Below, piece after piece: positions 2,032-27,882 of a DNA stretch of 40,103 nucleotides. Every line of letters begins with the position of its first letter. Position 1 is the stretch's first letter. Position numbers and translations under genes: made by a program. A model generated the notes under the pieces. It worked only from the letters and a program-made list of their open reading frames with translations, ran no database searches and was not told the origin of the DNA. This DNA is from Anaerofustis stercorihominis (lineage in GTDB: Bacteria > Bacillota > Clostridia > Eubacteriales > Anaerofustaceae). The stretch spans positions 1-40,103 of the forward strand of contig NZ_SPHL01000016.1 in NCBI RefSeq assembly GCF_005844425.1, given 5' to 3'.

Positions 2032-2337
2032 ATGATTACTATACTTGTTATATGCGGAAGTGGTGTCGCAACATCAACTTTAGCAGCAGAAAAGCTTAAA
2101 TCAATTTGCAAAGAAGAAAATATTGATATTGAAACTTATCAATGCAAAGTCAGCGATGCCAAAGCAAGAGCAAAAATGATTGATCCAGATATAATCGTTA
2201 CAACCGCTGAATTAAACCAAGAATTTAATATACCTGTCATAAACGGAAAATCATTAATTACAGAAAATGGGATCTCAGAATTTAAAAAAGAATTGTTTTC
2301 CGTTATTGTCAAGCTGTTAAGTTCAAATTCAAATTAA
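2032..2337 (+). CDS. PTS EIIB component, galactitol (GatB) type
   Basis: A cytoplasmic 101-residue IIB phosphocarrier of the galactitol/lactose-like superfamily. It takes phosphate from IIA on a Cys and passes it to the sugar bound by IIC. The phosphorylation loop is VICGSGVATSTLAAEK, with Cys8 as the phosphocysteine. The rest follows the family pattern, including the KVSDAKA segment, PDIIVTTAEL and the C-terminal INGKSLITENGI-type strand/helix. No IIC or IIA is adjacent; the only candidates in the window are the IIC at 7961-9271 and IIA at 27403-27882. It has its own promoter and a candidate operator upstream. The C-terminal tail (VKLLSSNSN) is slightly longer than in its two paralogues here. 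Substrate cannot be told from sequence. Confidence 0.9.
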   Translation: MITILVICGSGVATSTLAAEKLKSICKEENIDIETYQCKVSDAKARAKMIDPDIIVTTAELNQEFNIPVINGKSLITENGISEFKKELFSVIVKLLSSNSN

Positions 2338-2456: not shown

Positions 2457-2741
2457 ATGAAAACTATTTTAGTTGCATGTGGAACAGGTATTGCTACATC
2501 TACAGTAGCTGCAAAAAAATGTGAAGGAATTTGTAAAGAAGCTGGTATTCAAGTAAAAACAGTTCAATGTAAAGCTGCTGAAACTGCTTCAAAAGTAAAA
2601 GTTATTAAACCAGACGTAATCGTTGGTACAACAGATATTCCTGGAGATATCGGTGATACAGTTCTTTTAAATGGTAGATGCCTACTTACAGGTGTTGGTT
2701 TAAATCAATTCAAAGAAGATTTAATTAACGCTGTTAAATAA
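2457..2741 (+). CDS. PTS EIIB component, galactitol (GatB) type
   Basis: A 94-residue IIB protein. Its phosphorylation loop VACGTGIATSTVAAKK has Cys8 as phosphosite. It is clearly the closest relative of the IIB at 9358-9642: both begin MKTILVACGT and share the KTVQCKAA core and NGR-LTG stretch near the C-terminus. A strong ribosome site (GGAGG) precedes the ATG. It probably serves the same IIC as the other IIBs, or a IIC elsewhere in the genome. A clear terminator follows at 2844-2873. Codon choice (GCT, GGT, few rare codons) looks like that of a well-expressed gene, judged by eye. Confidence 0.9.
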   Translation: MKTILVACGTGIATSTVAAKKCEGICKEAGIQVKTVQCKAAETASKVKVIKPDVIVGTTDIPGDIGDTVLLNGRCLLTGVGLNQFKEDLINAVK

Positions 2742-2882: not shown

Positions 2883-2899
2883 AATTACCATTTGTAATT
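2883..2899. promoter_or_regulatory. Candidate shared operator, site 2 (perfect 6-bp palindrome arms)
   Basis: AATTAC-CATTT-GTAATT, an exact inverted repeat. It is nearly the same as AATTAC-TATT-GTAATT at 11130-11145 in front of another SDR gene. Its centre lies about 69 bases before the predicted transcription start of the SDR at 3024. Confidence 0.5.
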
Positions 2900-2923
2900 T
2901 TTTACAAAAGATAATTATGTTTA

Positions 2924-3023: not shown

Positions 3024-3776
3024 ATGTTAACAAACAAAGTCGCAATTGTAACAGGTGCAGGAACAGGCATAGGTAAGGAAGTTGCGAAGCTGTTCGGAAA
3101 AAACCATGCATCTGTTGTGATAAATTACAGATCAAGCGAAAAAGAAGCCAATGAAGTAAAAAAAGAAATTGAACAAATGGGTTCAAAAGCAATAACAGTA
3201 AAAGGTGATATATCCAATTATGATGATTGCAAAAAAATCATAAAAGAAGCTCTTGATGCTTTTGGACATATTGACATTTTAGTTAATAACTCAGGAATGG
3301 GACTTTCAAAAGGTAATATCCTTGATATAACGGATGAAGAATATCATAAAGTAATAAAAACAAACATAGATGGAACATATTATATGACAACACTTACTTT
3401 AAAACAAATGGAAGAACAAGGAACAGGAGGAAGCATTGTAAGCATATCATCTTCTGCGGTTGCACAACCAAGCAGCGGAAACGGTCCATATGCAATGAGT
3501 AAAGCTGCGGTAGAACTTTTAATGCGCTCAATCGCACAAAATCATGGAGTAAACGGTATAAGATGTAATATAGTTGCTCCAGGACCTACAGAAACAAACA
3601 TGGTAAAAGAATTCTTTGATGAAGAAAAGAGAAACAGAGTAACGAAAGAAATTCCTTTAAGACGTTTTGGAGACCCAAAAGAAACAGCTCAAGCTGTATT
3701 ATTTTTCGCAAGTGATATGTCAAGTTATGTAACAGGTCAAAAAATCCACGTCGATGGAGGGAGAACTATAAGATAA
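3024..3776 (+). CDS. Short-chain dehydrogenase/reductase (SDR), polyol/sugar type
   Basis: A classical 250-residue NAD(P)-dependent oxidoreductase. The Rossmann motif TGAGTGIG is at residues 10-17, NNSG at 88-91, and the catalytic Ser (about 143), Tyr156 and Lys160 (YAMSK) are all present. The C-terminal TGQKIHVDGGRT segment is typical of glucose-1-dehydrogenase and FabG-like members. Placed between PTS IIB genes and co-directional with a second SDR 27 nt downstream, it most likely oxidises a sugar alcohol, its phosphate, or a ketose derived from it. The start has GGAG 7 nt upstream. Asn34-Tyr-Arg after strand 2 suggests a preference for NADP over NAD, which is an inference. Confidence 0.88.
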   Translation: MLTNKVAIVTGAGTGIGKEVAKLFGKNHASVVINYRSSEKEANEVKKEIEQMGSKAITVKGDISNYDDCKKIIKEALDAFGHIDILVNNSGMGLSKGNILDITDEEYHKVIKTNIDGTYYMTTLTLKQMEEQGTGGSIVSISSSAVAQPSSGNGPYAMSKAAVELLMRSIAQNHGVNGIRCNIVAPGPTETNMVKEFFDEEKRNRVTKEIPLRRFGDPKETAQAVLFFASDMSSYVTGQKIHVDGGRTIR

Positions 3777-4637: not shown

Positions 4638-4666
4638 TTGCAATCATTTGTAATATAAATTATAAT
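4638..4666 (+). promoter_or_regulatory. Promoter for the Cys-less IIB, overlapped by operator-like site 3
   Basis: TTGCAA (4638-4643), 17-nt spacer, TATAAT (4661-4666). The sequence CAATCATTTGTAATA (4641-4655), which shares CATTTGTAAT with site 2, falls inside the spacer. A bound protein there would compete with RNA polymerase. This gives the small gene its own control apart from the SDR pair. Confidence 0.5.
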
Positions 4667-4696
4667 ATTGTAAGTAATAAGAAAAGGAGAATGAAC

Positions 4697-4972
4697 ATGA
4701 AAATTATTATCGCAGCAAGCATGAAAGATGCTAAATTTGCTAAATTTGAAGATTTAATTCACACTAACTGTGGAAAAGATGTTGAAGTTGTAAAATGTAA
4801 CGTTATTACAGATAATATTGAAGAATTAATAGCTTCAGAAACTCCTGATGCTATCGTTAAAGTTGGTGTAAAAGTTCCTGATACAGATATTCCTGTAATT
4901 GATGGATTAGCACTTAACTATCCTCAAATGGGTGCTAAAAAACTTTATGATGCAATCAACAAATTAAAATAA
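4697..4972 (+). CDS. IIB-like protein lacking the phosphocysteine
   Basis: A 91-residue protein that aligns end to end with the active IIB proteins in this window: an N-terminal MKIII strand, the VEVVKCNV segment against VKTVQCKA, TPDAIVKVGV against KPDVIVGTTD, and a similar C-terminal helix. The phospho-acceptor Cys8 is Ser, and the glycine-rich loop GTGIATS is replaced by MKDAKFA. It therefore should not carry phosphate as a normal IIB does. The ATG at 4691 lies only two bases after GGAGA, so I use the second ATG at 4697, seven bases from the site. It has its own promoter and a strong terminator. Roles could be a decoy subunit, a regulator of the PTS, or an unrelated binding function. Confidence 0.8.
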   Translation: MKIIIAASMKDAKFAKFEDLIHTNCGKDVEVVKCNVITDNIEELIASETPDAIVKVGVKVPDTDIPVIDGLALNYPQMGAKKLYDAINKLK

Positions 4973-4979
4973 TAAAAAA

Positions 4980-5002
4980 AGAGAAGATAATCTTCTCTTT
5001 TT
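4980..5002. terminator. Bidirectional terminator
   Basis: AGAGAAGAT and ATCTTCTCT form a 9-bp stem flanked by an A-run on the left and a T-run on the right. It can end both the plus-strand IIB-like gene and the minus-strand rubredoxin-domain operon. Confidence 0.85.
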
Positions 5003-5602
5003 TTATTCTACTCTGAAAAATTTTTCTGCAGGCTGTTTACAAATAGGACAAAGTGCCGGCGGATTCTTTCCTTCATGAATATAACCACATACACTGCATT
5101 TCCATTTCACGATTTCATTTTTTTCATATGAACTTTCTTCATTAAAATTAATTGTATTTAATAAATCTTTTATAATATCCTGAGGAATCGTCTCATCGCC
5201 TATCAAAGATTCTAAGAAAGCTTTTGAATTTCCACTTTGAGGAATCATAAATCCCGCTTCTCTGCTTAGATCCTCTGCAACAAGTCTTGACGATTTTTCG
5301 GCAGCAACCATTAATGCACTGTTACAACTTCTTGCAATGTTTTCCAATTCTATTTTATTTGAAATAATAGCTCTTAATGCTTTTATTGTATCATCTTTTT
5401 TCTTTTGTTGTACAGGTAATTTTTTTGGAACCATTGAAATAGCCGCTGAAGGACATACTTCACTGCATGTGCCACACCCTATACATTTCTCTACATCAAT
5501 AATACTATTTTCTGTATCTGTTGCTCCTGTAGGACAAACATATAAACACAAGCAATCTTTTGTACATAATCTTAAATTACGAACTGCATATTTTTCTGAC
5601 AT
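5003..5602 (-). CDS. Ferredoxin-like protein with C-terminal rubredoxin domain
   Basis: A 199-residue cytoplasmic electron-transfer protein. The N-terminus holds two [4Fe-4S] motifs. The first is unusual, with Cys13-x3-Cys17-x-Cys19-x3-Cys23-Pro; the second is canonical, Cys40-x2-Cys43-x2-Cys46-x3-Cys50-Pro. A Lys-rich linker and a helical middle follow. The C-terminus is a short rubredoxin-type Zn/Fe knuckle (Cys169/172 and Cys185/188) as found at the end of rubrerythrins. A longer frame continues upstream to 5731, but the ATG at 5602 has a GGGAGA site and starts one base from the upstream stop, so I chose it. It probably moves electrons to or from its operon partner in oxygen or peroxide defence; the partner reductase is not in the window. 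Confidence 0.78.
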   Translation of the reverse strand: MSEKYAVRNLRLCTKDCLCLYVCPTGATDTENSIIDVEKCIGCGTCSEVCPSAAISMVPKKLPVQQKKKDDTIKALRAIISNKIELENIARSCNSALMVAAEKSSRLVAEDLSREAGFMIPQSGNSKAFLESLIGDETIPQDIIKDLLNTINFNEESSYEKNEIVKWKCSVCGYIHEGKNPPALCPICKQPAEKFFRVE

Positions 5603-5603
5603 T

Positions 5604-6254
5604 TTACATTCTCCCTTCAACTTTTTCAAACTTCCAATCCGGAACCTTACATACAGGACAAAGTGCCGGTGCGTCTTCCCCCAAATATATAAATCCACAT
5701 ACACTGCAAATCCATACATTTGTTTTTTCAATCATGCTTTCACCTTCTTCTTTATATCTTCTAAGCAAGGAATCCAACATTCTTGTAACTTTTTCTCCCC
5801 ATACCATAACACGTTGTGCACCTCTATCAGAATTTTTTCTTGCTATTTGATTTGCATATGGATAAAGCACATCTAAATCTTTTTGTAAAATATCAAGCAT
5901 ATCATCTATATTACAGTCTTTAACACCTTCACCCTTTTGTAAAAACACTTCTGATAATTTTCTAAATCCATCTGCCTGTTTTTCCATGTATTGTTTTTCA
6001 CATCCCTTTGCCAAATTTGAGCATAAAATGCTCATTTCCATAGCAGACATTTCTTTTGAAACATGAGGTTCATACTCAATTTCATTATTTATTTCTTCTA
6101 CTACTGGTTTAAAATCTGTTTTACTTGCACCACAAAGAGGACATTTCCAATTAGAAGGAAATTCTTCCCATTTTGTTCCAGCCTTAATTCCTTTATCCGG
6201 AATCCCTTTTTCTTCATCATAAACATAACCACATATCTTACAAATATACTGCAT
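5604..6254 (-). CDS. Rubredoxin - helical - rubredoxin-like protein
   Basis: A 216-residue protein with three parts. An N-terminal rubredoxin has Cys5/Cys8 and Cys38/Cys41. The middle (about 60-165) is helical and resembles a rubrerythrin/ferritin-like bundle in spacing, but I do not find the ExxH di-iron ligands. The C-terminal knuckle has Cys183/186 and Cys199/202 and closely matches the end of the downstream gene. The layout recalls reverse rubrerythrin with an extra knuckle and without the di-iron site. Its TAA is one base from the next ATG, so translation is coupled. Likely role: one-electron transfer in oxidative-stress defence. The absence of the di-iron site is by eye. Confidence 0.78.
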   Translation of the reverse strand: MQYICKICGYVYDEEKGIPDKGIKAGTKWEEFPSNWKCPLCGASKTDFKPVVEEINNEIEYEPHVSKEMSAMEMSILCSNLAKGCEKQYMEKQADGFRKLSEVFLQKGEGVKDCNIDDMLDILQKDLDVLYPYANQIARKNSDRGAQRVMVWGEKVTRMLDSLLRRYKEEGESMIEKTNVWICSVCGFIYLGEDAPALCPVCKVPDWKFEKVEGRM

Positions 6255-7960: not shown

Positions 7961-9271
7961 TTAAAGCATAATCCATTTAGCAATTAGGAATGGAATCCAT
8001 GTAATCCATTGAGCACCTAAAGCGATACTTGTAATTTGTGTAGCGCCTTCAGGAACAGCAAGACCTGTGTAGCTTGCAAGACCTGTCATAACATCTGCTG
8101 CGATTGTAGAGAATGTTAGGTAAATTGCACACATAATGATTGTTTCAATAATACCTCTGAATAAGTTACCTTTGTTTGGTAATACAGCACATTGTACATA
8201 GAATACTAATGCAGCTAAGTCTGTTAATGGAAGAACTGTGTTCCATGGTAAGATTATAGCTTCAATGTAAATAATTGGAATAGCAAGTAATGCTAATGAA
8301 ATAACGAATGGGTGACCTGTTGCTACGGCAGCATCAAGACCGATGTATAATTCTTTACCTGGGAATCTCTTTTCAAGGAATGCTTGAGTCATTTCAGAGA
8401 TAGGCATTAAACCTTCCATCAATAATGCAACCATTCTTGGGATAAGAACCATAACGGCAGCGATGTTCATACCATCGATTAACATTTGTTGAATACCTGA
8501 AGCGATAGTTGTACCAGCAGTTGTAAATTGAGCCAAACCTGAAAGAATACAACCGATAACAAATCCCATAATCATTGGTTCACCAAGAAGACCAAGTTTT
8601 TCAGCAATACCTTCACTTGTCCAGTGAATGTCTTTAAGACCAGGAATCATTCCGATTATTTTATCAACAGGATATGTAACGATACAGTTACACATAGATT
8701 GGATATGAGGTAATGAAATACCTTCAAGTCCGAATACTTCAGCACAGTCTGCTTGTACCCAGTCAGCAACGATGAATATAATACCCATCATTAATACTGC
8801 TTGACCGATAGCAAATACCCATGCTAATACAGGGTTAGCTTCTCCGCAAACTAAGATAATAGCTGATGCTGTAAATAATACATGCCAGTAATTCCAGATA
8901 TCAACGTCCATTGTTTTTGTCCAGCCTAAAGCTATCATTACAATGTTTGTAATGATTACAGCAATAAATACGAATGGAACAACTTCTGTTGACCAAGCGA
9001 TAGCTGAACCAGCAGCCCAACCAACGTCAAATGCTGTTAATGGGAAGTTTAAGTTTTCAACTAGTTTTGCACCGATAACTGAAATTGCATTAGACATAAT
9101 AGCTATAACAGCGTTAAGTCCAATGAAACCAACACCGAAAGTCATACCAGCTCTTAAAGCTTCACCAAATTTAGCACCTAAGATAAGTCCTAAAATTGTA
9201 AAGATAATAGGCATCATAACTGATGCACCCATGTCAATTATATAACTAAATATAGTTGTTACGACTTGCAT
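7961..9271 (-). CDS. PTS EIIC permease, galactitol (GatC) family
   Basis: A 436-residue, highly hydrophobic membrane protein. It is the sugar-translocating IIC subunit of a galactitol-family phosphotransferase system, which imports a polyol or sugar and phosphorylates it with the phosphate carried by IIB. It shows the family N-terminus (a short cytoplasmic segment, then the FTILGLILGAKFGEALRAG-type region), about eleven to twelve membrane spans and the conserved GEANPVLAW and EGLMPISE stretches. It is the only IIC in the window, although three IIB genes are present. It lies 86 nt downstream of one IIB with a good ribosome site and no terminator between, so the two are co-transcribed from the promoter at 9791-9819. 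Galactitol itself is only one possible substrate; pentitols and other hexitols use the same family. Confidence 0.9.
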   Translation of the reverse strand: MQVVTTIFSYIIDMGASVMMPIIFTILGLILGAKFGEALRAGMTFGVGFIGLNAVIAIMSNAISVIGAKLVENLNFPLTAFDVGWAAGSAIAWSTEVVPFVFIAVIITNIVMIALGWTKTMDVDIWNYWHVLFTASAIILVCGEANPVLAWVFAIGQAVLMMGIIFIVADWVQADCAEVFGLEGISLPHIQSMCNCIVTYPVDKIIGMIPGLKDIHWTSEGIAEKLGLLGEPMIMGFVIGCILSGLAQFTTAGTTIASGIQQMLIDGMNIAAVMVLIPRMVALLMEGLMPISEMTQAFLEKRFPGKELYIGLDAAVATGHPFVISLALLAIPIIYIEAIILPWNTVLPLTDLAALVFYVQCAVLPNKGNLFRGIIETIIMCAIYLTFSTIAADVMTGLASYTGLAVPEGATQITSIALGAQWITWIPFLIAKWIML

Positions 9272-9357: not shown

Positions 9358-9642
9358 TTAACTTTTTAATGTTTCCAATAATTCATCAATACATTCTTGT
9401 AACTTAATACCTGTTAAGAATGCCCTTCCATTAATTGTTTTGCAAGGGAATGTTCCAGGCAAATCACAAGTTCCTATTACCAAATCAGGTAATATTTCAT
9501 TTGCTTTAGAAGCAGCATCGGCAGCTTTACACTGAACCGTTTTTACTTCAATATTATTTTGTTCGCAAAGTCTTTTTACTTTTTTGGCAACGACTGTAGA
9601 AGTAGCAATTGCTGTTCCACAAGCCACCAATATTGTTTTCAT
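9358..9642 (-). CDS. PTS EIIB component, galactitol (GatB) type
   Basis: A 94-residue IIB with phosphocysteine Cys8 in VACGTAIATSTVVAKK. The usual second glycine of the loop is Ala (GTA instead of GTG). It is first in the operon with the IIC and is therefore the natural partner of that permease. It shares more than half its residues by eye with the IIB at 2457-2741, so the two may be interchangeable or may answer to different IIAs. Strong sigma-A promoter with two operator-like repeats just after the predicted transcription start. Confidence 0.92.
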   Translation of the reverse strand: MKTILVACGTAIATSTVVAKKVKRLCEQNNIEVKTVQCKAADAASKANEILPDLVIGTCDLPGTFPCKTINGRAFLTGIKLQECIDELLETLKS

Positions 9643-9897: not shown

Positions 9898-9925
9898 AAA
9901 ATAGGGAGAATGTTCTCCCTATTTT
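9898..9925 (-). terminator. Terminator of the SDR / tail-anchored protein operon
   Basis: AAAATAGGGAGAA / TTCTCCCTATTTT, a perfect 13-bp stem. The stop codon of the upstream gene (9919-9921) lies inside the hairpin. Confidence 0.85.
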
Positions 9926-10308
9926 ATATAAAGCAATAAAAACATCAATAAAATAGCAACTACACTTACATAAAATGAAAATCGTGCCATAGATAGAGCC
10001 TGATCGACCTTTTTTTCTAACATGGCTATTCTTCTTTCCATTAAATCATAAATATCCAATGTTTGATTTTTAGATTTTTCAGCTTCTTCTTCTTTTAAAA
10101 GGTCTATGGGATTAATACCAACATTACCGCCTATTAAAGGAGCAAAAGCTCTTTTTCTTAAACTTTTCTTATAGCTGGCAAGTATTTTTCTTCTATCTTC
10201 TCCACTTGTCGAATCTAAATGAAACTCTTTATCTTCGTTTTTATTCTCTTCGTTCAAATTATCTTTTTCTTTAATATCTATATCTTTGTTTGTATCCATA
10301 TTATACAC
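9919..10308 (-). CDS. Small tail-anchored protein of unknown function, coupled to the SDR
   Basis: 129 residues. The N-terminal half is highly charged and probably disordered (rich in Asn, Asp, Glu, Lys). A middle stretch (RKRAFAPLIGGNVGINPIDLL) looks like a conserved motif, a short coiled coil follows (about 85-105), and the C-terminal 20 residues form one membrane helix. The start is GTG at 10308, overlapping the SDR stop by eight bases, or ATG at 10299. Either way translation depends on the SDR. I do not recognise a family. A tail anchor in tight coupling with a dehydrogenase suggests it could tether or organise a cytoplasmic enzyme at the membrane, but this is inference only. Confidence 0.7.
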   Translation of the reverse strand: MYNMDTNKDIDIKEKDNLNEENKNEDKEFHLDSTSGEDRRKILASYKKSLRKRAFAPLIGGNVGINPIDLLKEEEAEKSKNQTLDIYDLMERRIAMLEKKVDQALSMARFSFYVSVVAILLMFLLLYIK

Positions 10309-12319: not shown

Positions 12320-12994
12320 TTATTTTACTGAGTCTTTCATTTTTTGAATAAGCTCTTTATAATCAGCATCATCACCTTTAAAGATAGATGATGTTCCTGC
12401 CACTAAAACATCTGCGCCTGCTTTTACGCAGTTTGGAATTGTGTTTTCATTAATATTTCCATCAACGGCTATCATTAAATCCGGATTTCTGTCATTTGCC
12501 ATTTTTCTTATATTTTCAATTTTACCAAGAGTTTGTTTGATAAATTTTTGACCGGCAAATCCAGGAGAAACCGTCATTGCAAGAACAATGTCGATATCGT
12601 CGATTAAATATTCAAGTGCATCTTCATTTGTTGCAGGATTTAATGCAACACCTGTTTTTACACCCATTCTTTTAATATCTCTTAATACTCTGTGTATATG
12701 TATAGTACTTTCAGGATGAACGTGAATAAAGTCATTTTCATCTAAAATACTACATAATTTTTCAATATGTTTTTCAGGATGGAACATTGCAAGGTGAACA
12801 TCGAAAGGAATTTTTGTTTTCTTTTTCATATGTTCAAGCATATATATACCCATAGCTATATTTTCAACATAATGCCCGTCCATCATGTCAAAATGAATCA
12901 TGTCTGCACCGGCTTTTTCAAGCTTTTCAAGTTCCCATCCGAACTTCATAGGGTTACCACACATAATTGACGCTGATACTTTTAAATCATTCAT
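12320..12994 (-). CDS. Ribulose-phosphate 3-epimerase family protein, AlsE-like
   Basis: A 224-residue TIM-barrel protein. Family metal and catalytic positions are visible: HFDMMDGHYVEN (first metal site), FDVHLAM, a GVALNPAT strand, LAMTVSPGFAGQKF (phosphate-side loop) and a final VDGNINENT. Canonical Rpe has DGGI at that last site and a SPS start; here they are DGN and SASIMCGN. The ending GADVLVAGTSSIF resembles AlsE (D-allulose-6-phosphate 3-epimerase) more than housekeeping Rpe. VHPE replaces the usual VHxEA. It starts one base after the stop of the next epimerase gene, with a strong site (GGGGAGGA). Likely epimerises a ketopentose or ketohexose phosphate. Confidence 0.86.
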   Translation of the reverse strand: MNDLKVSASIMCGNPMKFGWELEKLEKAGADMIHFDMMDGHYVENIAMGIYMLEHMKKKTKIPFDVHLAMFHPEKHIEKLCSILDENDFIHVHPESTIHIHRVLRDIKRMGVKTGVALNPATNEDALEYLIDDIDIVLAMTVSPGFAGQKFIKQTLGKIENIRKMANDRNPDLMIAVDGNINENTIPNCVKAGADVLVAGTSSIFKGDDADYKELIQKMKDSVK

Positions 12995-12995
12995 C

Positions 12996-13679
12996 TTATT
13001 TGTCCTCCCCTACTGCTTTATGTATTATATCTTTCATTTCTTTTGTTAAAGGTTTATATAAATTTCTATCCCCTTTAAAAATAGCACTTGTTCCGCAAAC
13101 ATAAACATCTGCACCTGCTTTTGCACATCCAGGGATTGTTTCAGGTCCAATATTACCGTCTACTTCAATCAACAAGTCAGGATTATATTTTTCTTTCATT
13201 GCTTTTAAATCAGCAATTTTTTTGTATTGGTTTGGAATGAATTTTTCTCCTGAGCCACCAGGATTAACAGTCATAAGACAAACCAAATCAATATCTTTTA
13301 TAACTTCTTTTAAAACATTTAAGTTAGTAGATGGATTTAAAACAACACCTGCTTTAGAGCCGGCTGCTTTAATAGCCATTATACTTCTGTGTAAATGCTT
13401 TACCGCTTCAGCATGAATACAAATATATTCCGCTCCTGTTTTTGCGATTCTTTCATAATAAGCATCAGGCTCAACAACCATTAAATGAACATCAAATATC
13501 ATATCTGTATATTCTTTCATTGCTTCAAGCATATATAGCCCCATGCCTAAATTATTTACGAATTCACCATCCATTACATCAAAGTGAATCATATCCACGC
13601 CTGCTTCTTTAAGCGCATCTAATTCTTCACCGTATTCTAAAGCATTTCCGCACATAATCGAAGCTGCAATCTTATCCAT
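12996..13679 (-). CDS. Ribulose-phosphate 3-epimerase family protein, AlsE-like
   Basis: 227 residues and a clear paralogue of the gene downstream: both begin with ASIMCGN and carry DGNI in place of DGGI. It has HFDVMDGEFVNN, FDVHLMV, IHAEA, GVVLNPST, LMTVNPGGSGEKF and a C-terminal GADVYVCGTSAIF. The NPGGSG loop differs from the NPGFGGQ of housekeeping Rpe and from the SPGFAGQ of its neighbour, so the two paralogues may have different substrates. First gene of the operon ending at 11206, with its promoter in an unusual inverted repeat (13709-13752). Confidence 0.86.
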   Translation of the reverse strand: MDKIAASIMCGNALEYGEELDALKEAGVDMIHFDVMDGEFVNNLGMGLYMLEAMKEYTDMIFDVHLMVVEPDAYYERIAKTGAEYICIHAEAVKHLHRSIMAIKAAGSKAGVVLNPSTNLNVLKEVIKDIDLVCLMTVNPGGSGEKFIPNQYKKIADLKAMKEKYNPDLLIEVDGNIGPETIPGCAKAGADVYVCGTSAIFKGDRNLYKPLTKEMKDIIHKAVGEDK

Positions 13680-13708
13680 AAATGTTATATCCTTTCATAA
13701 AATTTATA

Positions 13709-13752
13709 CCCTATTATTCTTACATTATTATACCTTTTTTTAATAATAGGGT
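13709..13752. promoter_or_regulatory. Long inverted repeat spanning the epimerase operon promoter
   Basis: ACCCTATTATT (13709-13719) and AATAATAGGGT (13742-13752) are exact 11-bp inverted copies separated by 22 bases, and the -10 hexamer sits between them. One arm overlaps the -35, the other covers about +2 to +12. The arm centres are 33 bp apart, about three helical turns. This arrangement suits cooperative repressor binding. Confidence 0.5.
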
Positions 13753-13755
13753 CAA
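13728..13755 (-). promoter_or_regulatory. Promoter of the epimerase / dehydrogenase operon
   Basis: Minus strand TTGACC (13750-13755), 16-nt spacer, TATAAT (13728-13733). Confidence 0.65.
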
Positions 13756-13767
13756 TAATAAAAACAA

Positions 13768-13804
13768 AATCCTAAAGAAAAGGCAATATGTCTTCCTTAG
13801 GATT
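13768..13804 (-). terminator. Terminator of the epimerase / GatD / RpiB operon
   Basis: AATCCTAA / TTAGGATT stem with a larger loop, followed by a T-rich tract on the minus strand. Confidence 0.65.
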
Positions 13805-13821
13805 ATTGTCTTAAACTAAAT

Positions 13822-14301
13822 TTATTTTGTACGATATTTTGCTTCCATTTCAGCCATTACACCAAGTCTTTCAGTAAATCTTGGTTCTTTTGAATATTCT
13901 GTTTCAATCCAAACTTTAGCTATTTCAGCCATCATTCTTGGAGCAATAACTCTAGCGCCCATAGTTAAAATATTTAGTTTTGTATCGCTTTTAGCAAATT
14001 TAGCTGTAAATAATTCGTTACATACAGCAGCTCTTGCACCTGGAACTTTATTTGCGGCAACAGACATACCGACACCGTTACCACACATTAAAATACCACC
14101 TGTTTCACCTGTTTTGTCATTTACAACTTCAAGAGCAACTTTTTCTGCTATTAAAGAGAATTGAACAGGAGGTTTTGGAGCATCAGGCCCCATATCGATA
14201 ACCTTGATTCCCCAAGATTCTAATTCTTTTATAAGTAATTTTCTTTCTTCGATTGCTGCATGATCAGAACCGATTGCAATAGTTTTAAATTGACCTTCCA
14301 T
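13822..14301 (-). CDS. RpiB/LacA/LacB family sugar-phosphate isomerase
   Basis: A 159-residue aldose-ketose isomerase. It has GSDHAA (11-16), the catalytic Cys73 in LMCGNGVGMSVAANK, and AAVCNELFTA with GARVI near the C-terminus. The usual YPDFA segment is PPVQFSLIA here, so the substrate may be other than ribose 5-phosphate. RpiB-type enzymes interconvert ribose-5-P/ribulose-5-P, allose-6-P/allulose-6-P or galactose-6-P/tagatose-6-P. Its ATG overlaps the stop of the GatD-like gene (TAATG), giving translational coupling. In this setting (epimerase, dehydrogenase, isomerase in one operon) a rare sugar-phosphate is the likely substrate. Confidence 0.88.
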   Translation of the reverse strand: MEGQFKTIAIGSDHAAIEERKLLIKELESWGIKVIDMGPDAPKPPVQFSLIAEKVALEVVNDKTGETGGILMCGNGVGMSVAANKVPGARAAVCNELFTAKFAKSDTKLNILTMGARVIAPRMMAEIAKVWIETEYSKEPRFTERLGVMAEMEAKYRTK

Positions 14302-15374
14302 TATTTTTCTACTCCTTCTGGGAAGAACATAATCTTACCAAATAATGTTTTTCTTTCAAAATTAGCTTTAAATACTTCTTCGATATCATCAAGTGCATAT
14401 CTATGTGTAATTATTGGACTATAATCGATTAATCCTTTTTCAAGTGCTGCTACGGTAGAAGTCCAAGGTTTTCCAGGGAATCCTTGTTGAATAGCATTCC
14501 AAGAACCATATACAGTAAGTTCGCTTCTTCCGATTTTTTCAAAGTATTCTCTTGGAATATTAACATCTCCGTAAGGAATGCCTAAGTATAATACTTTAGC
14601 ACCTTTACATCCAAGACCAAGTACTTGAGCAGATGTGATTGGAGTTCCGCCTGATTCGATAACGATATCAGCGCCTCTTCCGTTTGTTACTTCAAGCACA
14701 CCGTTTCTTGCTGAATTGTAATCATCTATTTTAGATAATACTACATCTGTAGCACCGCATTGTTTAGCCCATTCAAGTTTTTCTTCCATAATATCAATTG
14801 CAATAATTCTTTTAGCACCGAATACTTTTGCAACTAAAATTGAAAGTAATCCAATAGGACCGCAACCCATAACAGCTACATCATCCCCAGGTTGCATCTT
14901 TGTTTTATATAAACCATGATATACAACAGCTGTAGGTTCAATAACAGCAGCTTGTTCATATGTTACATTGTCAGGAATTGGAACAACGTTAACTTCCGGC
15001 ATTGTAATATATTCAGCATAAGCACCGTCTCTTACGGCTCCGATAACTTCAAGTGTCATACATCTTGCATATTCACCTTTTTTACAATATTCACATTCAA
15101 AGCAAGGAAGAGCAGGACAAGCAGTTACTCTGTCACCAGCTTTAAATTTAGTAACGCCTTCACCAACAGCTTCAATTTGTCCGCTGAATTCATGACCAAA
15201 AGTAAAAATTCCTTTTTCAGGGAATTTAGGTCCATGGCTACGATATCTAGATAAGTCAGAACCACAAATACCAACAGCTTTAACTTTAATTAAAACTTCA
15301 CCAGGTTTTGCTTCAGGTTTTGGAACATCTTCTAATCTTAAATCTTGAACTCCATATAGTCTTGCAGCTTTCAT
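14301..15374 (-). CDS. Galactitol/pentitol-phosphate dehydrogenase, GatD-like
   Basis: A 357-residue zinc MDR. Catalytic zinc ligands are Cys37 and His61-Glu62 (FGHEFSG); structural zinc Cys91, 94, 97 and 105 lie in LPCFECEYCKKG. From memory, the arrangement PxLPCFxCxxCxKGxYxxC, the RDGxxAEY stretch and the GSW...PGxxW segment near the C-terminus closely follow E. coli GatD (galactitol-1-phosphate 5-dehydrogenase). It thus most likely oxidises the polyol phosphate delivered by the PTS to a ketose phosphate, using NAD. It lies between an Rpe-family and an RpiB-family gene in one operon. The exact substrate is not determined. Confidence 0.88.
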   Translation of the reverse strand: MKAARLYGVQDLRLEDVPKPEAKPGEVLIKVKAVGICGSDLSRYRSHGPKFPEKGIFTFGHEFSGQIEAVGEGVTKFKAGDRVTACPALPCFECEYCKKGEYARCMTLEVIGAVRDGAYAEYITMPEVNVVPIPDNVTYEQAAVIEPTAVVYHGLYKTKMQPGDDVAVMGCGPIGLLSILVAKVFGAKRIIAIDIMEEKLEWAKQCGATDVVLSKIDDYNSARNGVLEVTNGRGADIVIESGGTPITSAQVLGLGCKGAKVLYLGIPYGDVNIPREYFEKIGRSELTVYGSWNAIQQGFPGKPWTSTVAALEKGLIDYSPIITHRYALDDIEEVFKANFERKTLFGKIMFFPEGVEK

Positions 15375-15404: not shown

Positions 15405-16052
15405 TTATTTATCAGCAGCTTCTCTTAGAGCTTTTAAGTTCTTTTCAACATCTCCTGTGAATGCAAAAGAACCGGCAACAATTACGTTCGCACCAGCATC
15501 AACAAATTCTTTAACATTTTCAGTATTGATACCACCGTCAATTTCAATATCAATATCTCTGTCGCCAATCATTTCTTTAAGTTCTCTAACTTTTTCTACC
15601 ATACCCATGATACATTTTCCGCCACCGCCACCTGGGTTAACAGTCATTAATAGAACCATATCAATATCATCTAAAACGTATTTAAGTACATCAAGTGGAG
15701 TTGCAGGATTTAAAACAACACCGCATTTTACTCCAAAAGATTTAATAAGCATTAAACTTCTGTGTAAATGAGTTGTAGCTTCCGCATGAACAGTAATCAT
15801 TTGAGCTCCGGCTTTAACAATTCTTTCAATGTATCTGTCTGGTTCTCTAACCATCATATGCACATCAAAGAATAAGTCTGTATTTGGTCTAAGCATAGCG
15901 ATTTGATCAGGACCAAATGCGATATTTGGAACATAGTTCCCATCCATTACATCAATATGTAACATTTCTACTTTACAGTCTTCAACAGCTTTAATTTGTT
16001 CGTTTAATCTACCGAAATCAGCTCCGAAAATTGAAGGTGATAATTTTACCAT
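15405..16052 (-). CDS. Ribulose-phosphate 3-epimerase family protein
   Basis: 215 residues and the most Rpe-like of the three epimerases here. It begins KLSPSIFGADF, and has HIDVMDGNYVPN, FDVHMMV, VHAEA, GVVLNPATP and EIDGGINTEN near the C-terminus. The phosphate-side loop is NPGGGGGKCI rather than NPGFGGQSF, an unusual five-glycine run. First gene of an operon with the GatD-like dehydrogenase and RpiB-like isomerase, so it may serve the polyol pathway rather than, or as well as, the housekeeping pentose phosphate pathway. Confidence 0.88.
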   Translation of the reverse strand: MVKLSPSIFGADFGRLNEQIKAVEDCKVEMLHIDVMDGNYVPNIAFGPDQIAMLRPNTDLFFDVHMMVREPDRYIERIVKAGAQMITVHAEATTHLHRSLMLIKSFGVKCGVVLNPATPLDVLKYVLDDIDMVLLMTVNPGGGGGKCIMGMVEKVRELKEMIGDRDIDIEIDGGINTENVKEFVDAGANVIVAGSFAFTGDVEKNLKALREAADK

Positions 16053-18231: not shown

Positions 18232-21200
18232 CTATTTTCTAAAACGTTTATCTCTGATTAACTTGCTGCTTACAATTCCAATTACCATAAATGAGCATAA
18301 TACCAAGATTATGTATAAATTAATATTATTCATGTCCGAAGTTGCTGCACTGTCGGTATCATCGGAAGATTTACGTGTTTTGTCATCTATAACAACATCT
18401 CTGTAATTAGTTATAGTATAGCCATCATATGTTACCTTATATCCATCAGGGACCTCAACTTCTTTTACGGTATAAACAATTCTTTTATTTAATGAATTGT
18501 ATTCAGGCAGATTTTCAAATACATATTCCCATGTGTTTGTTTTTCCTTTTAAGGTTGCTTCGTCAACTTTTACATTATCTGCATAAAGTTCAACCTTAAT
18601 ATTTTTAGGACGTACTTTATCATAATTATCCATATCATCCCAAACCTTTTTAATAGGAATGTTTATGGTATCATTTAATGTATTTGTAATATTATATCCA
18701 TCATAAGTTACGGCATATTCATCAGGAACAACTTCTTCAACTTCATAAGTGTACTCTTTTCCACTATCATCAGTCACAAGAAGCCCTTCAAATTTATATT
18801 CCCATTCATCGCCATCTTTGCTTATCCATATAGGTTCAAAATCAAGCTTAACTTTATCTTTTCCGTCTATACTTCTAAATATATTAATTTGTATATCTTC
18901 AGGTCTTGTATTGTAAGCATTTGAACTGTCAAGCCATGTTTTTTTACCGGATATTTCTTTTTTACCTATATTGGTTATTGTTGTTTTACCATTCTCATCA
19001 TTATTTAATATGCGATAATCGTAATTTTCTATACCTATTCCGTCTATAGAAATTTCTCTTGCATAATAAGTATATTCGTTGCCTGCTTTGTCATACTTAG
19101 GAAGATTTCGGAATGTCCCTTTCAAATTATTTTTCGTAAGAAGCAATGTCATTTGATTTGAAGTACCGTTTTGCATTACAGGTTCACTGCTGTCATCTCC
19201 GATTTCTCCCGTTGTTCTGTAAAGTCCCACTCGGACGATTCCTTGATTTGCTGATTCAACACCATACCATACCTTTTCAACATTATAGGAAGTAGATTCT
19301 ACATTTGTAAATTCAAATTGTATATAGTTACCTATGCTACTTTCGCCCATACTTTCCTGCAAATATCCGCTTGGCACGGTTTCAAAGACTTTATACTGCG
19401 TATGTCCCTTTATATCAAGCTTGCTTCCGCTCACAACAAGAGGCAAGTCATTCCAAACCGCTTTCCATTCCTCATATTCGTAATAAGGTTTGCTTGGATT
19501 TGAATCCGCCTCTCCATTAAGAGTTACTCTTGCAGGTGTTTTAAAAGATTTCCAAGTCCCGTTTGAAGCAAGGTATTTTATTTCTAAAGTTACATTTGTT
19601 TTATTTGAGGATGGATTCCATTTCTTCAAAGCATAAACTTTTGTTGAATCAAGGGTATTTGTTACTGTATTGCTATTATAAGTTGTTGTATAAGTAGAGT
19701 TATAAGTATTATCTCCATTGTTTCCAACAATATCTTCATCTTTAACATGCCCGTCTGTTAAAGTGTAATTGCTGTCCAGTTCTCTTGCCCTGTATTCATA
19801 TTCATTTCCGTTTACATCAGACTTTGGAAGTCCGCTTACGGTTGTTGTAACACTGTTGTCTTCATCGCTATTAGTTCCATATATGGTTACAATCATATCT
19901 TTACTTGTTTGATTGCTTGCATATATTTCAACATTTTCCCAGTCACCCGCAGCAGATTTCCTTTGTACAATAAAGCTTGCCTGCCATGTATATCCGCTTT
20001 GAGATGTTTTTGGTCTTTGAGAATAAATATTGTTATTATCTCCTACCCAATTCTTCGTAAATTCAAAGCTCGTTGTTTCCAAACGATTATACATAACCCT
20101 TGTAGCATTATTGTTATATGTTGTTTCCGGTTGATCTTTTCCATTTGCCCAGTATGCCGGAGTAAACATTCCTCCGTTAAAGTTATAAATATAACCAGAG
20201 CCATTATTAGTTTCAACGACTGTTACTGTTGTAGGACTTGCTACACTGTCATCACTACCATAATGAATTGTTTTTTCTAAAACTCTGTACTGAAGCCTTG
20301 TAACTTCATTGTTTCGAGCATCTTTTTTTACAATAATTCTTGGTAAATTCGCATAACTTTTATTTACGCCCCATATTGTACTGTCGTTTATTCTTCCGGT
20401 TAAACTTCTATCAAATTGATAACCGTTAAATATTGCATTATAATTCGCTTCGGTTAAATTATCTTTAAAATATTCATAAGCATTTTTATAACTTTTATCC
20501 GAACTATCCATTTCGCTTACTTGAAGTTCAAAATCTACCGTAAGGTCATATCCTAAATAATCATTGTCTATTATATTTCCGTCATTATCTACCCAGTTTT
20601 TACTATATGGAATATTTGTTGTAATATTATTTGATAAATTATTCATAATAATATTACTGTTATCATTTTCTCTCCTATTTTCAGTTACTTTTCCTAAGTA
20701 ACTATTACCACCTGAAGGAGAAACGATATAATTTGAATCAGCAGAAAGAGTTTCTTTCACAACATATTTCCAAACCATACCATTTGGAGCATATTTTTCA
20801 AGCTCACCCATAGCATCACCTGTAATTTCATATGTCCAATTATTTTCACCTTTTTGAGTCCAAGTTATTTCATATAGACTTTCATCAACCTTTTCTTCCG
20901 AAATAGAGTTACCCTGCCCTGGTTGTTCATTTGCATATTTATAAAGGGTAAGCTCAATATCACCAGGTCTAAATCCAAAAGTATCTTTATAATCATTCCA
21001 TACTTTCGTCCCTCTTATATTAACAGTATCTCTCACATCATCAGGTGCATTTACAAATGTTGCACTTGGGGCAGGACCAAACAATGATTCACTTGAAGGA
21101 TATAAATCTCCGGTTTCTATTCCGGCATATGTATCGGTTTTTATATTAGGAATATTTTCTTTTTCCAAATCTGTATTAACAACCCAGTTATCAATACCTC

Positions 21201-24200
21201 CAAGATAATTCTTATTTTCTTCCACTGAATAAACATATTTGGAGCCGTTTGGTGCATATATGTCCAAATCTTCAAATAAAATTTCTTTTTCAAGAGGGTC
21301 TGCCTCTGTTCCCGCATCAGGATTCAAACCAAGCAAATGCTTAGTTTCATACGCATTTTGAACTTCATTTGCCGTCCATGTCTTATACATAACAGCTTCT
21401 TTCTGCGAGGTAGTTCCGTCATTTTTCGTATAAGTACGGTATAGTGTAAATGTTACTCCAGGGAAAGCTTTAGGATCTCCGTTTTCATCAAATGAAAGTT
21501 CCATAAATTTCTTTATTGAAAGCTCGCCTTTTTTACTGTTATATGCATTTTCAACTAAATAAGTATGGTTATCTTTATTGTCAAATACATCTTCTATTGC
21601 AGGATTTGCACCGTCCGCCCAATAAATTTCGCTTTCTTTTAATTCATAAGAATATAGCTTACCGTCTTCATTGTATTTAGGTATTTTCTTTGCCTCTCCT
21701 TGACCGGCATATATAGTATCATTATTTGAATCTAAAGCATTTTCACCCAAATATAATACTTGGAATAAATATGAACCGTTTTTATATATATCTGACCATT
21801 TATCAACCGTTATTGTTGCTACAGGACTTCCATCCCCGCTTTCTGATGCCAGTTTTTGATACAAAGTAAATGTAACGCCAGGCAAGTCTTCATTTGGATA
21901 AGAAGAAGGTACTGCAGACCATATTTTCTGACCTTGAATTGTTAAATCAGAATATATTGTATTTTCAAATATACCGCCTTCAATTAAAGCATAGTTTGCA
22001 TAATCAGATACGTTTGGCTTATCTTGAACATTTGATAAATCAAGCACATAATCTTCATACTTGCTATCTACCTCATCTCTCGTTCCCAAATATATAGGAT
22101 TATTCTGAGCGTTTTCATCAATTACATAATAATTCCCTACCTGATAATCAAACTTTTTAAAATCTACATTAGTTCTTTCAACGGCATAATACATAATTTC
22201 ATATCCCAAATCATCATATTTTGGAACATTATTAAAGAGTACTTTCCATTGATCAACAGGATCACTACCCTCTATATCACTATAAACCCATCTATAATTA
22301 GAAACATACAATGAAGTTTTTTCCTCAACATTTCCATTTTCATCTTTTTCATGAGTTACTTGATAAATATCAAGATACAAGTCCATTCTATGTCCGTTTT
22401 CGAACATATAATCATCTTTCCATACTTTTTCCCATGATAAAGTTTTTGAACCCGTTAATGCATTCCTAATGCTAATATCCTGTGTATCATTTGCAAAATG
22501 ATCTCCGACAGTATACTCACCTGATGTAATAGATGAAGAATACTGACTGTATAATTCATATAATTTTGGATATTTATTCTTTATCGTAGAAAGTGCAACA
22601 TATGTTCCGTTCGAATCTACCCAGACTTCGCTTATTTTATAACTTGCAACAGAACCGGATCTGTTATATTTAGGAAGATTAAAGAAATAACATTTACTAT
22701 TTTCACCGTCTGCCCATAGAATTTTTTGTGTTGATGAAACATTATTTCCATTATTATCTTTTATGGCAACATAGTTATCAGAATTGCCTATAACAACACT
22801 GTCCGCATTATCAACACCGTTTCTTGTTATCTTATAATAAGAAGGATTATTGTCGGTTGCAAAATCAAGCTGAGCAACTAAAGAAAGAGAAACATTTTGG
22901 TTTTCTTCAATATTTTGTAATTCTTTTTGAATCTCACTTCTAAGAGAACCGTCTCCGTCAACCCATGTTTTTTCTACTGTTAAATTTATATTTCCAAGTC
23001 TTCTGTTAACGGCTTTATATACTTTTTCACCGCCTATTTCTTCGCTAGTATATTTTACGTCATATCTATGATATTGTGTCTCATATTGAATTGACGTATA
23101 GTTGGTATCACCTTCGTCATCATATTCATCCGGAGCTTTAGGATTATCATAGTTCGGAGTCTGTCCCTGATCCAAATAATATGTATCCAAAGGAATATTT
23201 GTATCCCCTACTTTTGTTTCCAAAATATAGACGTTCTCTTCATTTAAATTGCCTATACCGACATAATCATACCAAACACCATCACCCAATGTAACTTCAT
23301 TTATTTTTTCATTGGTTTCTCTATTGTATACAGAAATTGTTACATTTTCTCTATGTGCAATATCGCTGTCGTCTATCCAGCCTTTTGCAACAAGTATTCT
23401 ATTTCCAGGTCCCGGTGCATTGACAATAGTTGATTCATATCCTTCTACTGTCCTTGTGGTTTCCATATCAGGTAAATAATCCTGATTTGCTTCTGTTAAG
23501 AAATATTCATACTGCATTCCTTCTTCATTAAATTCATCCAAAGGCGTTACCCTTACCATCCAAGGAGAAATTTCCTGTGCATATATTCCAAGATTAGCAT
23601 TTACCAAAGTTTTATCAGTATCGACAACACCGTCCATTTCAAATACGGCAACGGGATCATCATATGTATATTCATTATTTAACATTTGATAAATATTAAA
23701 CTTAATCTTTGCCCCTGCCGGAGCATTAATCTCATGCCCATCGGCATCATGCCATTTTTTTATCACATCATATTTTATTGTGTTTTCTATGGTATTGGTA
23801 ACAATAGTATGCTGAGGATTATCCTCATCTATTGTCGGAGTTGAAAGAAATTCTATTTCCCTGTTATCCAATGTAAGGGCAAAAGTTCCGCTTCCGTCAG
23901 CATTTGCTTTAAACAGGTTGCTTCCGCCTGCTTTATATACACCGCTTTCAACCCATCTGTATTCAAGTTCCCTGCCTAGATTGTCGTATTTAGGCATAGA
24001 TTTTGTTTTTGTGTCAGTCAAATTTTCTGCATAGAAATCATCCATTACCAAAGTCTGGGTCGTATTAATCCACGTTTGTGTGCCTTTTACTCTTTGTTGT
24101 AATGAGAATTCTACACTGACATCATCAAATCCTGATTGGAAAGATGAAGCTTCCCAAATTTTTGTAACTTCGGTTGAAATGGTTCCTTTTATTCTGTTTG

Positions 24201-26214: not shown

Positions 26215-26810
26215 AACCTTCCTCCATTTCCTGTCTTTTAAATAAATAAACGAACTAAAATATATCAACATGAACAAAATAAAGATAAAAGTAAAAACAT
26301 TAAAATTTTATGTATAAAAATACATTTACAATATGTATGCATTTCCAGAATTTAAGCAACATATATTATTACAAATGAAATTTATAAACTTTGTCAGAAA
26401 ATGTATATATAATGGAACAAATAAAATATATTACATAAAAGAAATTTTTTTAAATAAAAAAGACAAAAAAAATAAATAATAATACTTTGTAAATTTTAAA
26501 TGTATTATTATTTATTTGTTACAATTTGTATATATATTTTATCACAACTTTAAACGTTTAACCATAGTACGTTTTTTTTATAAAATGTACTATGAACATA
26601 TTATTTGATAATATTTCATTTTTAAGTTAAATTATTATAGAACATAAAAATGTAAAACAAAAAATATTTTTTTCCCCATGATGATATAAAATTGTGAAAA
26701 AGAAATATTATGAAAAAAGTTATAAACTGTCAAAAATATTTTTGTTTGAACTTAAAAGTATTTATCTAAATTTTCATAAATCTAAATAAAAATTGATAAT
26801 GAAAATATTA
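26215..26810. other. Long AT-rich gene-free region upstream of the giant surface protein
   Basis: Nearly 600 bases with no ORF that has a usable ribosome site; a 19-codon frame at about 26711 has none. It holds a 32-bp hairpin (26563-26594), several short A/T palindromes and presumably the promoter of the surface protein. I cannot place that promoter with confidence; a weak CTGACA-N18-TGTAAT pair lies near 26370-26400 on the minus strand. This is a long leader for a surface gene and would suit regulated or phase-variable expression, though no invertible repeat pair is visible. Confidence 0.5.
26563..26594. repeat. Isolated 13-bp-arm hairpin
   Basis: CATAGTACGTTTT and AAAATGTACTATG pair (one G-T) around six bases. 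No U-tract follows on either strand, so it is not a normal terminator. It may be an operator or a stem in a long mRNA leader. Confidence 0.5.
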
Positions 26811-26916: not shown

Positions 26917-27357
26917 TTAATTTTTCTCAGATGCCATCTCTTCTTTTTTATTATTCTTAAACATAGTTACTATGGATTGTCTGTTTATTTTTAAATCTTC
27001 TTCTAAAGCTTGCACTGTTGGTTTTACAATCCACCAGCCTTTTTTAGAAGGTATTCTGTATTTACTTGGTAAATTAGGAACGTGTTCCACCCATTTATCA
27101 TAAATTTGTTTTGATAAATCATCAATACTTATAGATGAATTGTTTTTAAGTATCTTTGAACTTTCAATAAATACAAAATCATTAAAATCTCTTGGTATCC
27201 ATTTTTTCGCACAAACCGCACCATAAAACAGAACACAACCATATAAAAAGCCTATACATCCAATAATATATGTATGCTCAACTATCCATTCATAAATAAA
27301 ATATAGATGTTCGCCAAAAGACATTCGCATCAGAAATTCTACTATTATTAAATACAT
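26917..27357 (-). CDS. Small membrane protein of unknown function, co-transcribed with PTS IIA
   Basis: 146 residues. The first ~20 residues are moderately hydrophobic and a clear membrane helix follows at about 31-50 (YIIGCIGFLYGCVLFYGAV). The rest is a soluble domain of mixed charge with a conserved-looking stretch KKGWWIVKPTVQALEEDLKI and a Lys/Glu-rich tail. I do not recognise a family. It lies 45 nt downstream of the IIA gene on the same strand with AAGGAG before its ATG, so the two form an operon. Physical linkage suggests a role with the PTS (adaptor or regulator at the membrane), but no sequence motif proves it. It is not GutM by eye. Confidence 0.75.
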   Translation of the reverse strand: MYLIIVEFLMRMSFGEHLYFIYEWIVEHTYIIGCIGFLYGCVLFYGAVCAKKWIPRDFNDFVFIESSKILKNNSSISIDDLSKQIYDKWVEHVPNLPSKYRIPSKKGWWIVKPTVQALEEDLKINRQSIVTMFKNNKKEEMASEKN

Positions 27358-27402: not shown

Positions 27403-27882
27403 TTATGCTTCTTCTACTTGTTTAGCTAATTCGTCTTGAACGATTTTCATTATTAACTCTTTATCTTTAGATTCATAAATTGATTTTAATTTATCTTCTT
27501 GTTGAATTAGAGAAATAACTGTTTGTAACATAGCTAATTGTTGATGTGGTTCTTTTAATGCAAGCATAAATAAAATTGAAACTTCGCATTTTTCACCAGC
27601 ACCTGCCATTACTTCAAAAGTAACAGGTTTTTTAAGTGTAGCAACACAAATGCTTTGTTTGTTTACATGTTCAACATCTGTATGAGGAACAGCTACTGCA
27701 AAATCTTCTACAGGTAAACCTGTTGCGAATACTTTTTCTCTTTCTTTTACAGCTTCGATATAGCTTTCTTTTACATAACCAAGATCAAATAATTTATGAG
27801 CAACTTGATCTAATGCATCTAAATTACTATCAGCCTCCACATCGAAAAAAATTAGATCTTTGTTAAATTCTAAATCTGCCAT
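27403..27882 (-). CDS. PTS EIIA component, fructose/mannitol/galactitol (EIIA-2) type
   Basis: A 159-residue cytoplasmic phosphocarrier that receives phosphate from HPr on His67 (AVAVPHTDVEHV) and passes it to IIB. It shows the EIIA-2 fold pattern: a GYVKESYIEAVKEREKVFATGLP helix-turn region, the phosphohistidine strand, ILFMLALKEPHQQLAMLQ and a C-terminal helix. It is the only IIA in the window and 18 kb from the IIC, so it may serve the whole set of IIBs. A strong AAGGAGG site and a consensus promoter with a 17-nt spacer precede it. The divergent neighbour is a class II aldolase. Confidence 0.92.
   Translation of the reverse strand: MADLEFNKDLIFFDVEADSNLDALDQVAHKLFDLGYVKESYIEAVKEREKVFATGLPVEDFAVAVPHTDVEHVNKQSICVATLKKPVTFEVMAGAGEKCEVSILFMLALKEPHQQLAMLQTVISLIQQEDKLKSIYESKDKELIMKIVQDELAKQVEEA

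What the first reader, a model, noticed from the sequence alone, without database searches (positions are those of the whole stretch)
4697..4972. IIB paralogue without its phosphocysteine, under its own promoter
The protein aligns along its whole length with the active IIBs but has Ser at the Cys8 position and MKDAKFA for the GTGIATS loop, so it should not be phosphorylated in the usual way. It is intact, has a good ribosome site, its own promoter with an operator-like site, and its own terminator, so it looks selected rather than decayed. A non-catalytic IIB could act as a sensor, a competitor for IIC or IIA, or a ligand-binding protein.
Basis: partly seen in the sequence, partly recalled or inferred. 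Interest (0 to 1): 0.7.

Follow-up and report, generated by a model that had tools for sequence, protein, structure and literature searches.

The report
Conserved cysteine-free relative of PTS IIB
This small gene belongs to a rare but deeply conserved family of proteins that share ancestry with a sugar-uptake phosphate carrier, lack the phosphate-carrying cysteine, and have a different conserved site in the same place, which suggests a sensor or regulator rather than a decayed copy.

Summary
The ORF (start 4697, stop 4972) is intact, has a good ribosome site, a promoter whose TATAAT is conserved in three related genomes, and its own terminator. It is a homologue of galactitol-type PTS IIB: profile-profile E 7e-9 over its full length, with clean decoys, and a confident model (pLDDT 94) with GatB topology. 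No Pfam or NCBIfam model recognises it.

It is not one odd paralogue. I found 11 family members in distant Bacillota, and all lack the cysteine. The family is monophyletic (100/100), under strong purifying selection (dN/dS 0.04-0.08), and mostly lies in Gat-PTS/polyol clusters. Its hallmarks are D/N-x-K-x-x-K after strand 1, an Asn after strand 2, and GLxLxYPxMGxxK after strand 4. A Thr and a Lys conserved in active IIBs are replaced by invariant Lys and Asn.

Best reading: a non-phosphorylatable IIB relative repurposed as a binding protein, probably for a phosphorylated intermediate, feeding into regulation. The family and its divergence are shown; ligand and partner are inferred. A plain IIA/IIC decoy is disfavoured.

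The parts
4697..4972 (+). Cys-less IIB-like protein (91 aa), the finding
4685..4689 (+). ribosome-binding site AGGAG for the ATG at 4697
4638..4666 (+). sigma-70-like promoter TTGCAA-N17-TATAAT; -10 box invariant in four genomes
4638..4653 (.). imperfect dyad TTGCAATCATTTGTAA overlapping the -35; perfect dyad at the same place in L008, absent in the other two Anaerofustis genomes
4971..5007 (.). terminator hairpin between convergent genes (bidirectional by sequence)
2032..2337 (+). Cys-bearing IIB paralogue 1 (CGSGVATS)
2457..2741 (+). Cys-bearing IIB paralogue 2 (CGTGIATS); its relative lies directly upstream of the Cys-less gene in L008
3804..4622 (+). short-chain dehydrogenase immediately upstream
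7961..9271 (-). IIC of galactitol type (EIIC-GAT)
9358..9642 (-). Cys-bearing IIB paralogue 3 (CGTAIATS)
27403..27882 (-). IIA (PTS_EIIA_2) of the same cluster

Best explanation
It is a free-standing relative of galactitol-type IIB that does not carry phosphate in the usual way. The P-loop that holds the phosphocysteine is replaced by a lysine-bearing loop and helix start, and the loop after strand 4 is a fixed GLxLxYPxMGxxK motif, so the old phosphate-transfer face is now a different, tightly conserved site. Most likely that site binds a phosphorylated intermediate of the polyol pathway served by the neighbouring Gat-type PTS. The protein would then act as a phosphorylation-independent sensor or regulator of the pathway (of a transporter subunit, an enzyme or a SorC-type regulator), much as the HPr paralogue Crh became a regulator without its catalytic histidine. 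Shown: homology to IIB, universal absence of the Cys, a monophyletic family, selection, location of the conserved residues by predicted secondary structure, and genomic association. Inferred: clustering of those residues in one pocket (no coordinates were available), an anionic or phosphate ligand (invariant lysines, Asn, Tyr, helix starts), and the regulatory output.
For: Family against active IIBs: prob 95.8, E 7e-9, decoys clean; the family profile finds Cys-bearing IIBs at E down to 2e-6, and the window's own IIB1 at 3e-4; the active-IIB profile finds the G768-type Cys-less members. Model pLDDT 94.3, pTM 0.85; best structural matches are the EIIB-like domain of 4r6i (Z 9.9) and GatB 5gqs (Z 9.8, 86 residues aligned). 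Secondary structure matches an active IIB modelled as control. All 11 members lack the Cys; Thr to invariant Lys13 and Lys to invariant Asn35 switches; GLxLxYPxMGxxK invariant. 12 of 17 invariant residues lie on the strand C-terminal edge, hypergeometric p 0.009, descriptive. dN/dS 0.04-0.08. One clade, 100/100. Every genome with it has a Gat IIC (11 of 11). Neighbours are an SDR, a SorC regulator, transketolase/FGGY kinase, PfkB kinase, or IIB and IIC.
Against: No ligand or partner is shown. Receiver domains score nearly as well structurally (Z 9.6), so the fold match alone is not specific; homology rests on the sequence profile. The family is small (11 rows, effectively three lineages), so some invariance is shared descent. 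Neighbours differ between lineages, so no single partner is indicated. In G009 the only IIC found is of another type; that genome is 84% complete. The edge residues were chosen from predicted secondary structure after the invariants were known.
Confidence: 0.45

Rival explanations
1. A protein-binding regulator: the new face docks a fixed protein partner (IIC, IIA, active IIB, a catabolic enzyme or the SorC regulator), without a small ligand, as the EIIB-like domains of MtlR/AtxA-type regulators do.
For: An EIIB-like regulator domain is the best structural match, and such domains are known to mediate interaction and dimerization (PMC8560693, PMC6148471). Recurrent neighbours are the SorC regulator (three genomes), SDR, FGGY kinase and IIB.
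Against: No one neighbour is constant across lineages; the conserved set is rich in lysines and in the loop after strand 4, which would also suit a ligand.
Confidence: 0.3
2. A decoy or competitor that occupies the IIB site on IIA or IIC and throttles uptake.
For: Related fold and same gene cluster; in L008 it lies between IIB and IIC.
Against: The residues conserved in active IIBs, P-loop included, are not retained: none of 13 columns conserved at 90% or more is kept at 90%, and two are switched to other invariant residues. A mimic should keep the docking face.
Confidence: 0.1
3. A small enzyme or phosphate carrier using another residue, part of the polyol-phosphate catabolic chain.
For: Embedded between transketolase and FGGY kinase genes in G768; invariant Lys, Tyr, Asn, near-invariant Asp11.
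Against: 91 residues without a known catalytic template; Asp11 is Asn in one member; no family match.
Confidence: 0.1
4. A decaying IIB duplicate without function.
For: Absence of the catalytic cysteine; low pairwise identity to the window IIBs.
Against: dN/dS 0.04-0.08, similar to the active IIBs and IIC; invariant motifs across distant Bacillota; own promoter and terminator.
Confidence: 0.02

Closest known systems
GatB, galactitol-type PTS IIB (PF02302; PDB 5GQS, 1TVM)
   Same: Full-length profile homology, beta-alpha-beta-alpha-beta-beta-alpha topology, location in Gat-type PTS clusters.
   Different: No active-site cysteine, no P-loop; invariant Lys and Asn where IIBs have Thr and Lys; YPxMG motif with a one-residue insertion after strand 4; not detected by PF02302.
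EIIB-like domains of PRD regulators (MtlR, AtxA, Mga; PDB 4R6I, 5WAY)
   Same: IIB-like domain used for regulation or interaction; best structural match (Z 9.9).
   Different: Those are C-terminal regions of large DNA-binding regulators and some keep a Cys (MtlR C419; AtxA C402, implicated in dimerization, PMC8560693). This is a free-standing 91-aa protein.
Crh, the HPr paralogue without catalytic histidine (Bacillus; from general knowledge)
   Same: Principle: a PTS carrier paralogue that lost its phosphocarrier residue and was kept for regulation.
   Different: Unrelated fold; Crh is phosphorylated on Ser46, and nothing comparable is known here.
Response-regulator receiver domains
   Same: Similar alpha/beta topology (Z up to 9.6).
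   Different: No conserved Asp at the end of strand 3; no profile similarity to the one receiver protein tested (0.9%).

Membership tests
PTS EIIB, lactose/cellobiose/galactitol type (PF02302) | Match to the family model | tested here: not met
   No Pfam or NCBIfam hit at E<=1, whereas the three active IIBs score 41-53 bits
PTS EIIB, lactose/cellobiose/galactitol type (PF02302) | Sequence homology at profile level | tested here: met
   hhalign prob 95.8, E 7e-9, decoys at most 4%
PTS EIIB, lactose/cellobiose/galactitol type (PF02302) | IIB fold | tested here: met
   Model pLDDT 94.3; 5gqs Z 9.8, rmsd 2.6, 86 residues; same element order as the active-IIB control; not exclusive, receivers at Z 9.6
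PTS EIIB, lactose/cellobiose/galactitol type (PF02302) | Phosphorylatable Cys in the loop after strand 1 | tested here: not met
   Gly or Ala in 11 of 11
PTS EIIB, lactose/cellobiose/galactitol type (PF02302) | Phosphoryl transfer from IIA to sugar via IIC | not testable with these tools
   Needs biochemistry
EIIB-like domain of PRD regulators (MtlR/AtxA/Mga) | Fusion to HTH and PRD domains | tested here: not met
   Free-standing frames of 92-119 codons stop to stop in all members
EIIB-like domain of PRD regulators (MtlR/AtxA/Mga) | IIB-like fold | tested here: met
   4r6i_A Z 9.9, rmsd 2.4, 83 residues
Response-regulator receiver | Phospho-acceptor Asp at end of strand 3 | tested here: not met
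   Strand 3 is residues 52-56; no conserved Asp at its end in the alignment

The most novel reading that the evidence does not exclude
A new class of free-standing 'pseudo-IIB' in which the phosphocysteine site of a PTS carrier was converted into a non-covalent sensor pocket for a phosphorylated sugar alcohol, reporting pathway flux to the transporter or its regulator without being phosphorylated.
Probability: 0.35. Interest if true: 0.75.

Novelty: new variant of a known kind. Interest (0 to 1): 0.5.

Why it matters
Catalytically dead paralogues of PTS carriers are known for HPr (Crh), and IIB-like domains occur inside large regulators, but my literature searches aimed at a Cys-less IIB paralogue found no described free-standing one (open-access library only). 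If the site senses pathway phosphates, it would be a new way for bacteria to couple polyol uptake to internal flux. It also gives a small 91-residue protein on which the question can be tested directly.

Tried and rejected
Pfam and NCBIfam scans of the protein gave nothing. PDB sequence search with the family profile gave only chance-level matches, best E 0.42. Plasmids and viral contigs: none. G144 hits of the family profile are a stretch of 343-347 aa oxidoreductase-like frames and were not counted as members. IIC tree: IICs of the Cys-less loci cluster (0 of 500 shuffles as low) but not exclusively; related IICs at other loci of the same genomes (L062, L068) go without a second Cys-less gene, so a strict IIC partnership was rejected. 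A small protein next to another Gat IIC in the same genome (L022:8932-9252) was tested as a second Cys-less IIB and not supported (4.3% and 0.5%). A common operator for the cluster was tested and is only weakly supported. Literature searches found no free-standing Cys-less IIB.

Full report
Observation. The window lies in an Anaerofustis genome (closest named record A. stercorihominis DSM 28733, L007). The ORF at 4691/4697-4972 is intact; AGGAG at 4685-4689 selects the ATG at 4697, as in the sister genomes. The cluster holds three Cys-bearing IIBs (2032, 2457, 9358), a galactitol-type IIC (7961), a IIA (27403), SDRs, zinc alcohol dehydrogenases, RpiB and ribulose-phosphate-epimerase-like enzymes, which suggests a polyol PTS pathway.

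Is it a IIB? By itself the protein matches no Pfam or NCBIfam model at E up to 1 and is 18-27% identical to the window's IIBs. Homologues were gathered by genome searches: three Anaerofustis species, a rumen MAG labelled Lachnospiraceae (L008), G009, G020, G027, G030 and, in another class of the same phylum, G768, G806 and G827. Against a profile of 14 active Gat IIBs this family gives hhalign probability 95.8, E 7e-9 over 83 of 91 columns. The reversed profile, eight column shuffles and ten unrelated families from the same loci all stay at 4% or less. Searches in both directions agree: the family profile picks up Cys-bearing IIBs, including the window's IIB1 and the IIB near the Cys-less gene in G027, and the IIB profile picks up the G768-type members.

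Fold. AlphaFold2 on the 11-row alignment gave pLDDT 94.3 and pTM 0.85, with strands 2-7, 30-35, 52-56, 67-69 and helices 11-25, 41-48, 80-90. The best structural matches are the EIIB-like domain of 4r6i (Z 9.9) and GatB 5gqs (Z 9.8); receiver domains reach Z 9.6, so the fold alone is not specific. A control model of an active IIB shows the same order of main elements and also lists receivers close behind GatB.

What changed. In a joint alignment of 11 Cys-less and 14 active proteins, the Cys column is Gly (7) or Ala (4) and the next is Gly (7) or Ser (4). Of 13 columns conserved at 90% or more in IIBs, none is kept at 90% in the Cys-less family. Two are switched to different invariant residues: the P-loop Thr to Lys13, and the Lys after strand 2 to Asn35. 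Further invariants are Lys16 and G-L-x-L-x-Y75-P-x-M-G-x-x-K82, with Tyr75 on an inserted column. Twelve of 17 invariant residues (Met1 left out) lie on the C-terminal edge of the strands by predicted secondary structure (p 0.009, descriptive).

Selection and history. dN/dS between Anaerofustis species is 0.04-0.08, similar to the active IIBs and IIC (some dS values are near saturation). The Cys-less proteins form one clade against all IIBs sampled, 100/100. The family is rare: 7 of 67 genomes in the order, 4 of 391 in the class sample and 3 of 398 in the phylum sample counting only strong matches, 3 of 22 in the order of G768, 1 of 295 in the order of L008.

Neighbourhood. All 11 genomes have a Gat-type IIC. 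In Anaerofustis the gene follows an SDR; in L008 it lies between an active IIB and a convergent IIC; in G020, G027 and G030 it stands alone, convergent with a SorC-type regulator (sugar-binding domain confirmed by Pfam for G027 and G030; the G020 one is assigned by its similar sequence); in G768 it is packed between a transketolase half and an FGGY kinase, and in G806 and G827 it is next to the kinase; in G009 it follows a PfkB kinase. In G009, G020 and G806 the contig ends before any transporter gene. IICs of these loci cluster in the IIC tree, but not exclusively.

Expression signals. The TTGCAA-17-TATAAT promoter is not above chance in number, but its -10 box is invariant in four genomes including L008. 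Terminator hairpins follow the gene in all four although their sequences differ. A dyad over the -35 is perfect in L008, has one mismatch in the window and is lost in the other two Anaerofustis genomes.

Mechanism. The phosphate-transfer face of an IIB has been rebuilt and then held fixed. Invariant lysines, an Asn and a Tyr near helix starts suggest a non-covalent site for an anionic, probably phosphorylated, ligand; the gene's company suggests a polyol-pathway intermediate. The likely output is regulatory. A protein partner instead of a ligand is the main rival. A decoy is disfavoured because a mimic should keep the IIB face. The analogies are Crh among HPr proteins (general knowledge) and the EIIB-like domains of MtlR/AtxA-type regulators (PMC8560693; PMC6148471).

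Verdict. This is a new variant of a known kind: a free-standing, Cys-less relative of IIB with its own conserved site and unknown ligand.

Noticed in passing
window 2891-2908: Perfect 18-base inverted repeat TTTGTAATTTTTTACAAA upstream of the promoter region of the SDR at 3024; its half-site resembles the dyad at 4638-4653.
   Followed up: partly
L022:8932-9252 (G000:C66): A 106-aa protein between a Gat IIC and an amidohydrolase-like gene, IIB-sized, without Cys in the first loop; profile comparison with IIBs was not significant.
   Followed up: partly
window 9919-10308; L018:5166-5453; L019:3488-3775; L016:13958-14386: Small unknown protein with a conserved YKxSxxRAxFxPL stretch and a hydrophobic C-terminus, in the same PTS clusters; no Pfam match for the window or L018 copy.
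   Followed up: no
window 26917-27357; L018:58-474: Unknown protein with an N-terminal hydrophobic stretch, no Pfam match, next to IIA in the window and next to the SIS-domain gene in L018.
   Followed up: no
window 12320-12994, 12996-13679, 15405-16052: Three ribulose-phosphate-epimerase-like genes in one cluster, suggesting that more than one sugar epimer is processed.
   Followed up: no
L007:11939-13243 and 13578-14882: The IIC is tandemly duplicated in A. stercorihominis DSM 28733; the window has one copy here.
   Followed up: no
window 5003-6254: Rubredoxin- and ferredoxin-like genes lie between the Cys-less gene and the CHAP-domain gene; they are absent at this place in L016 and L007.
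   Followed up: no
window 18232-26277: Very large (2681 aa) repeat-rich predicted surface protein inside the polyol cluster.
   Followed up: no
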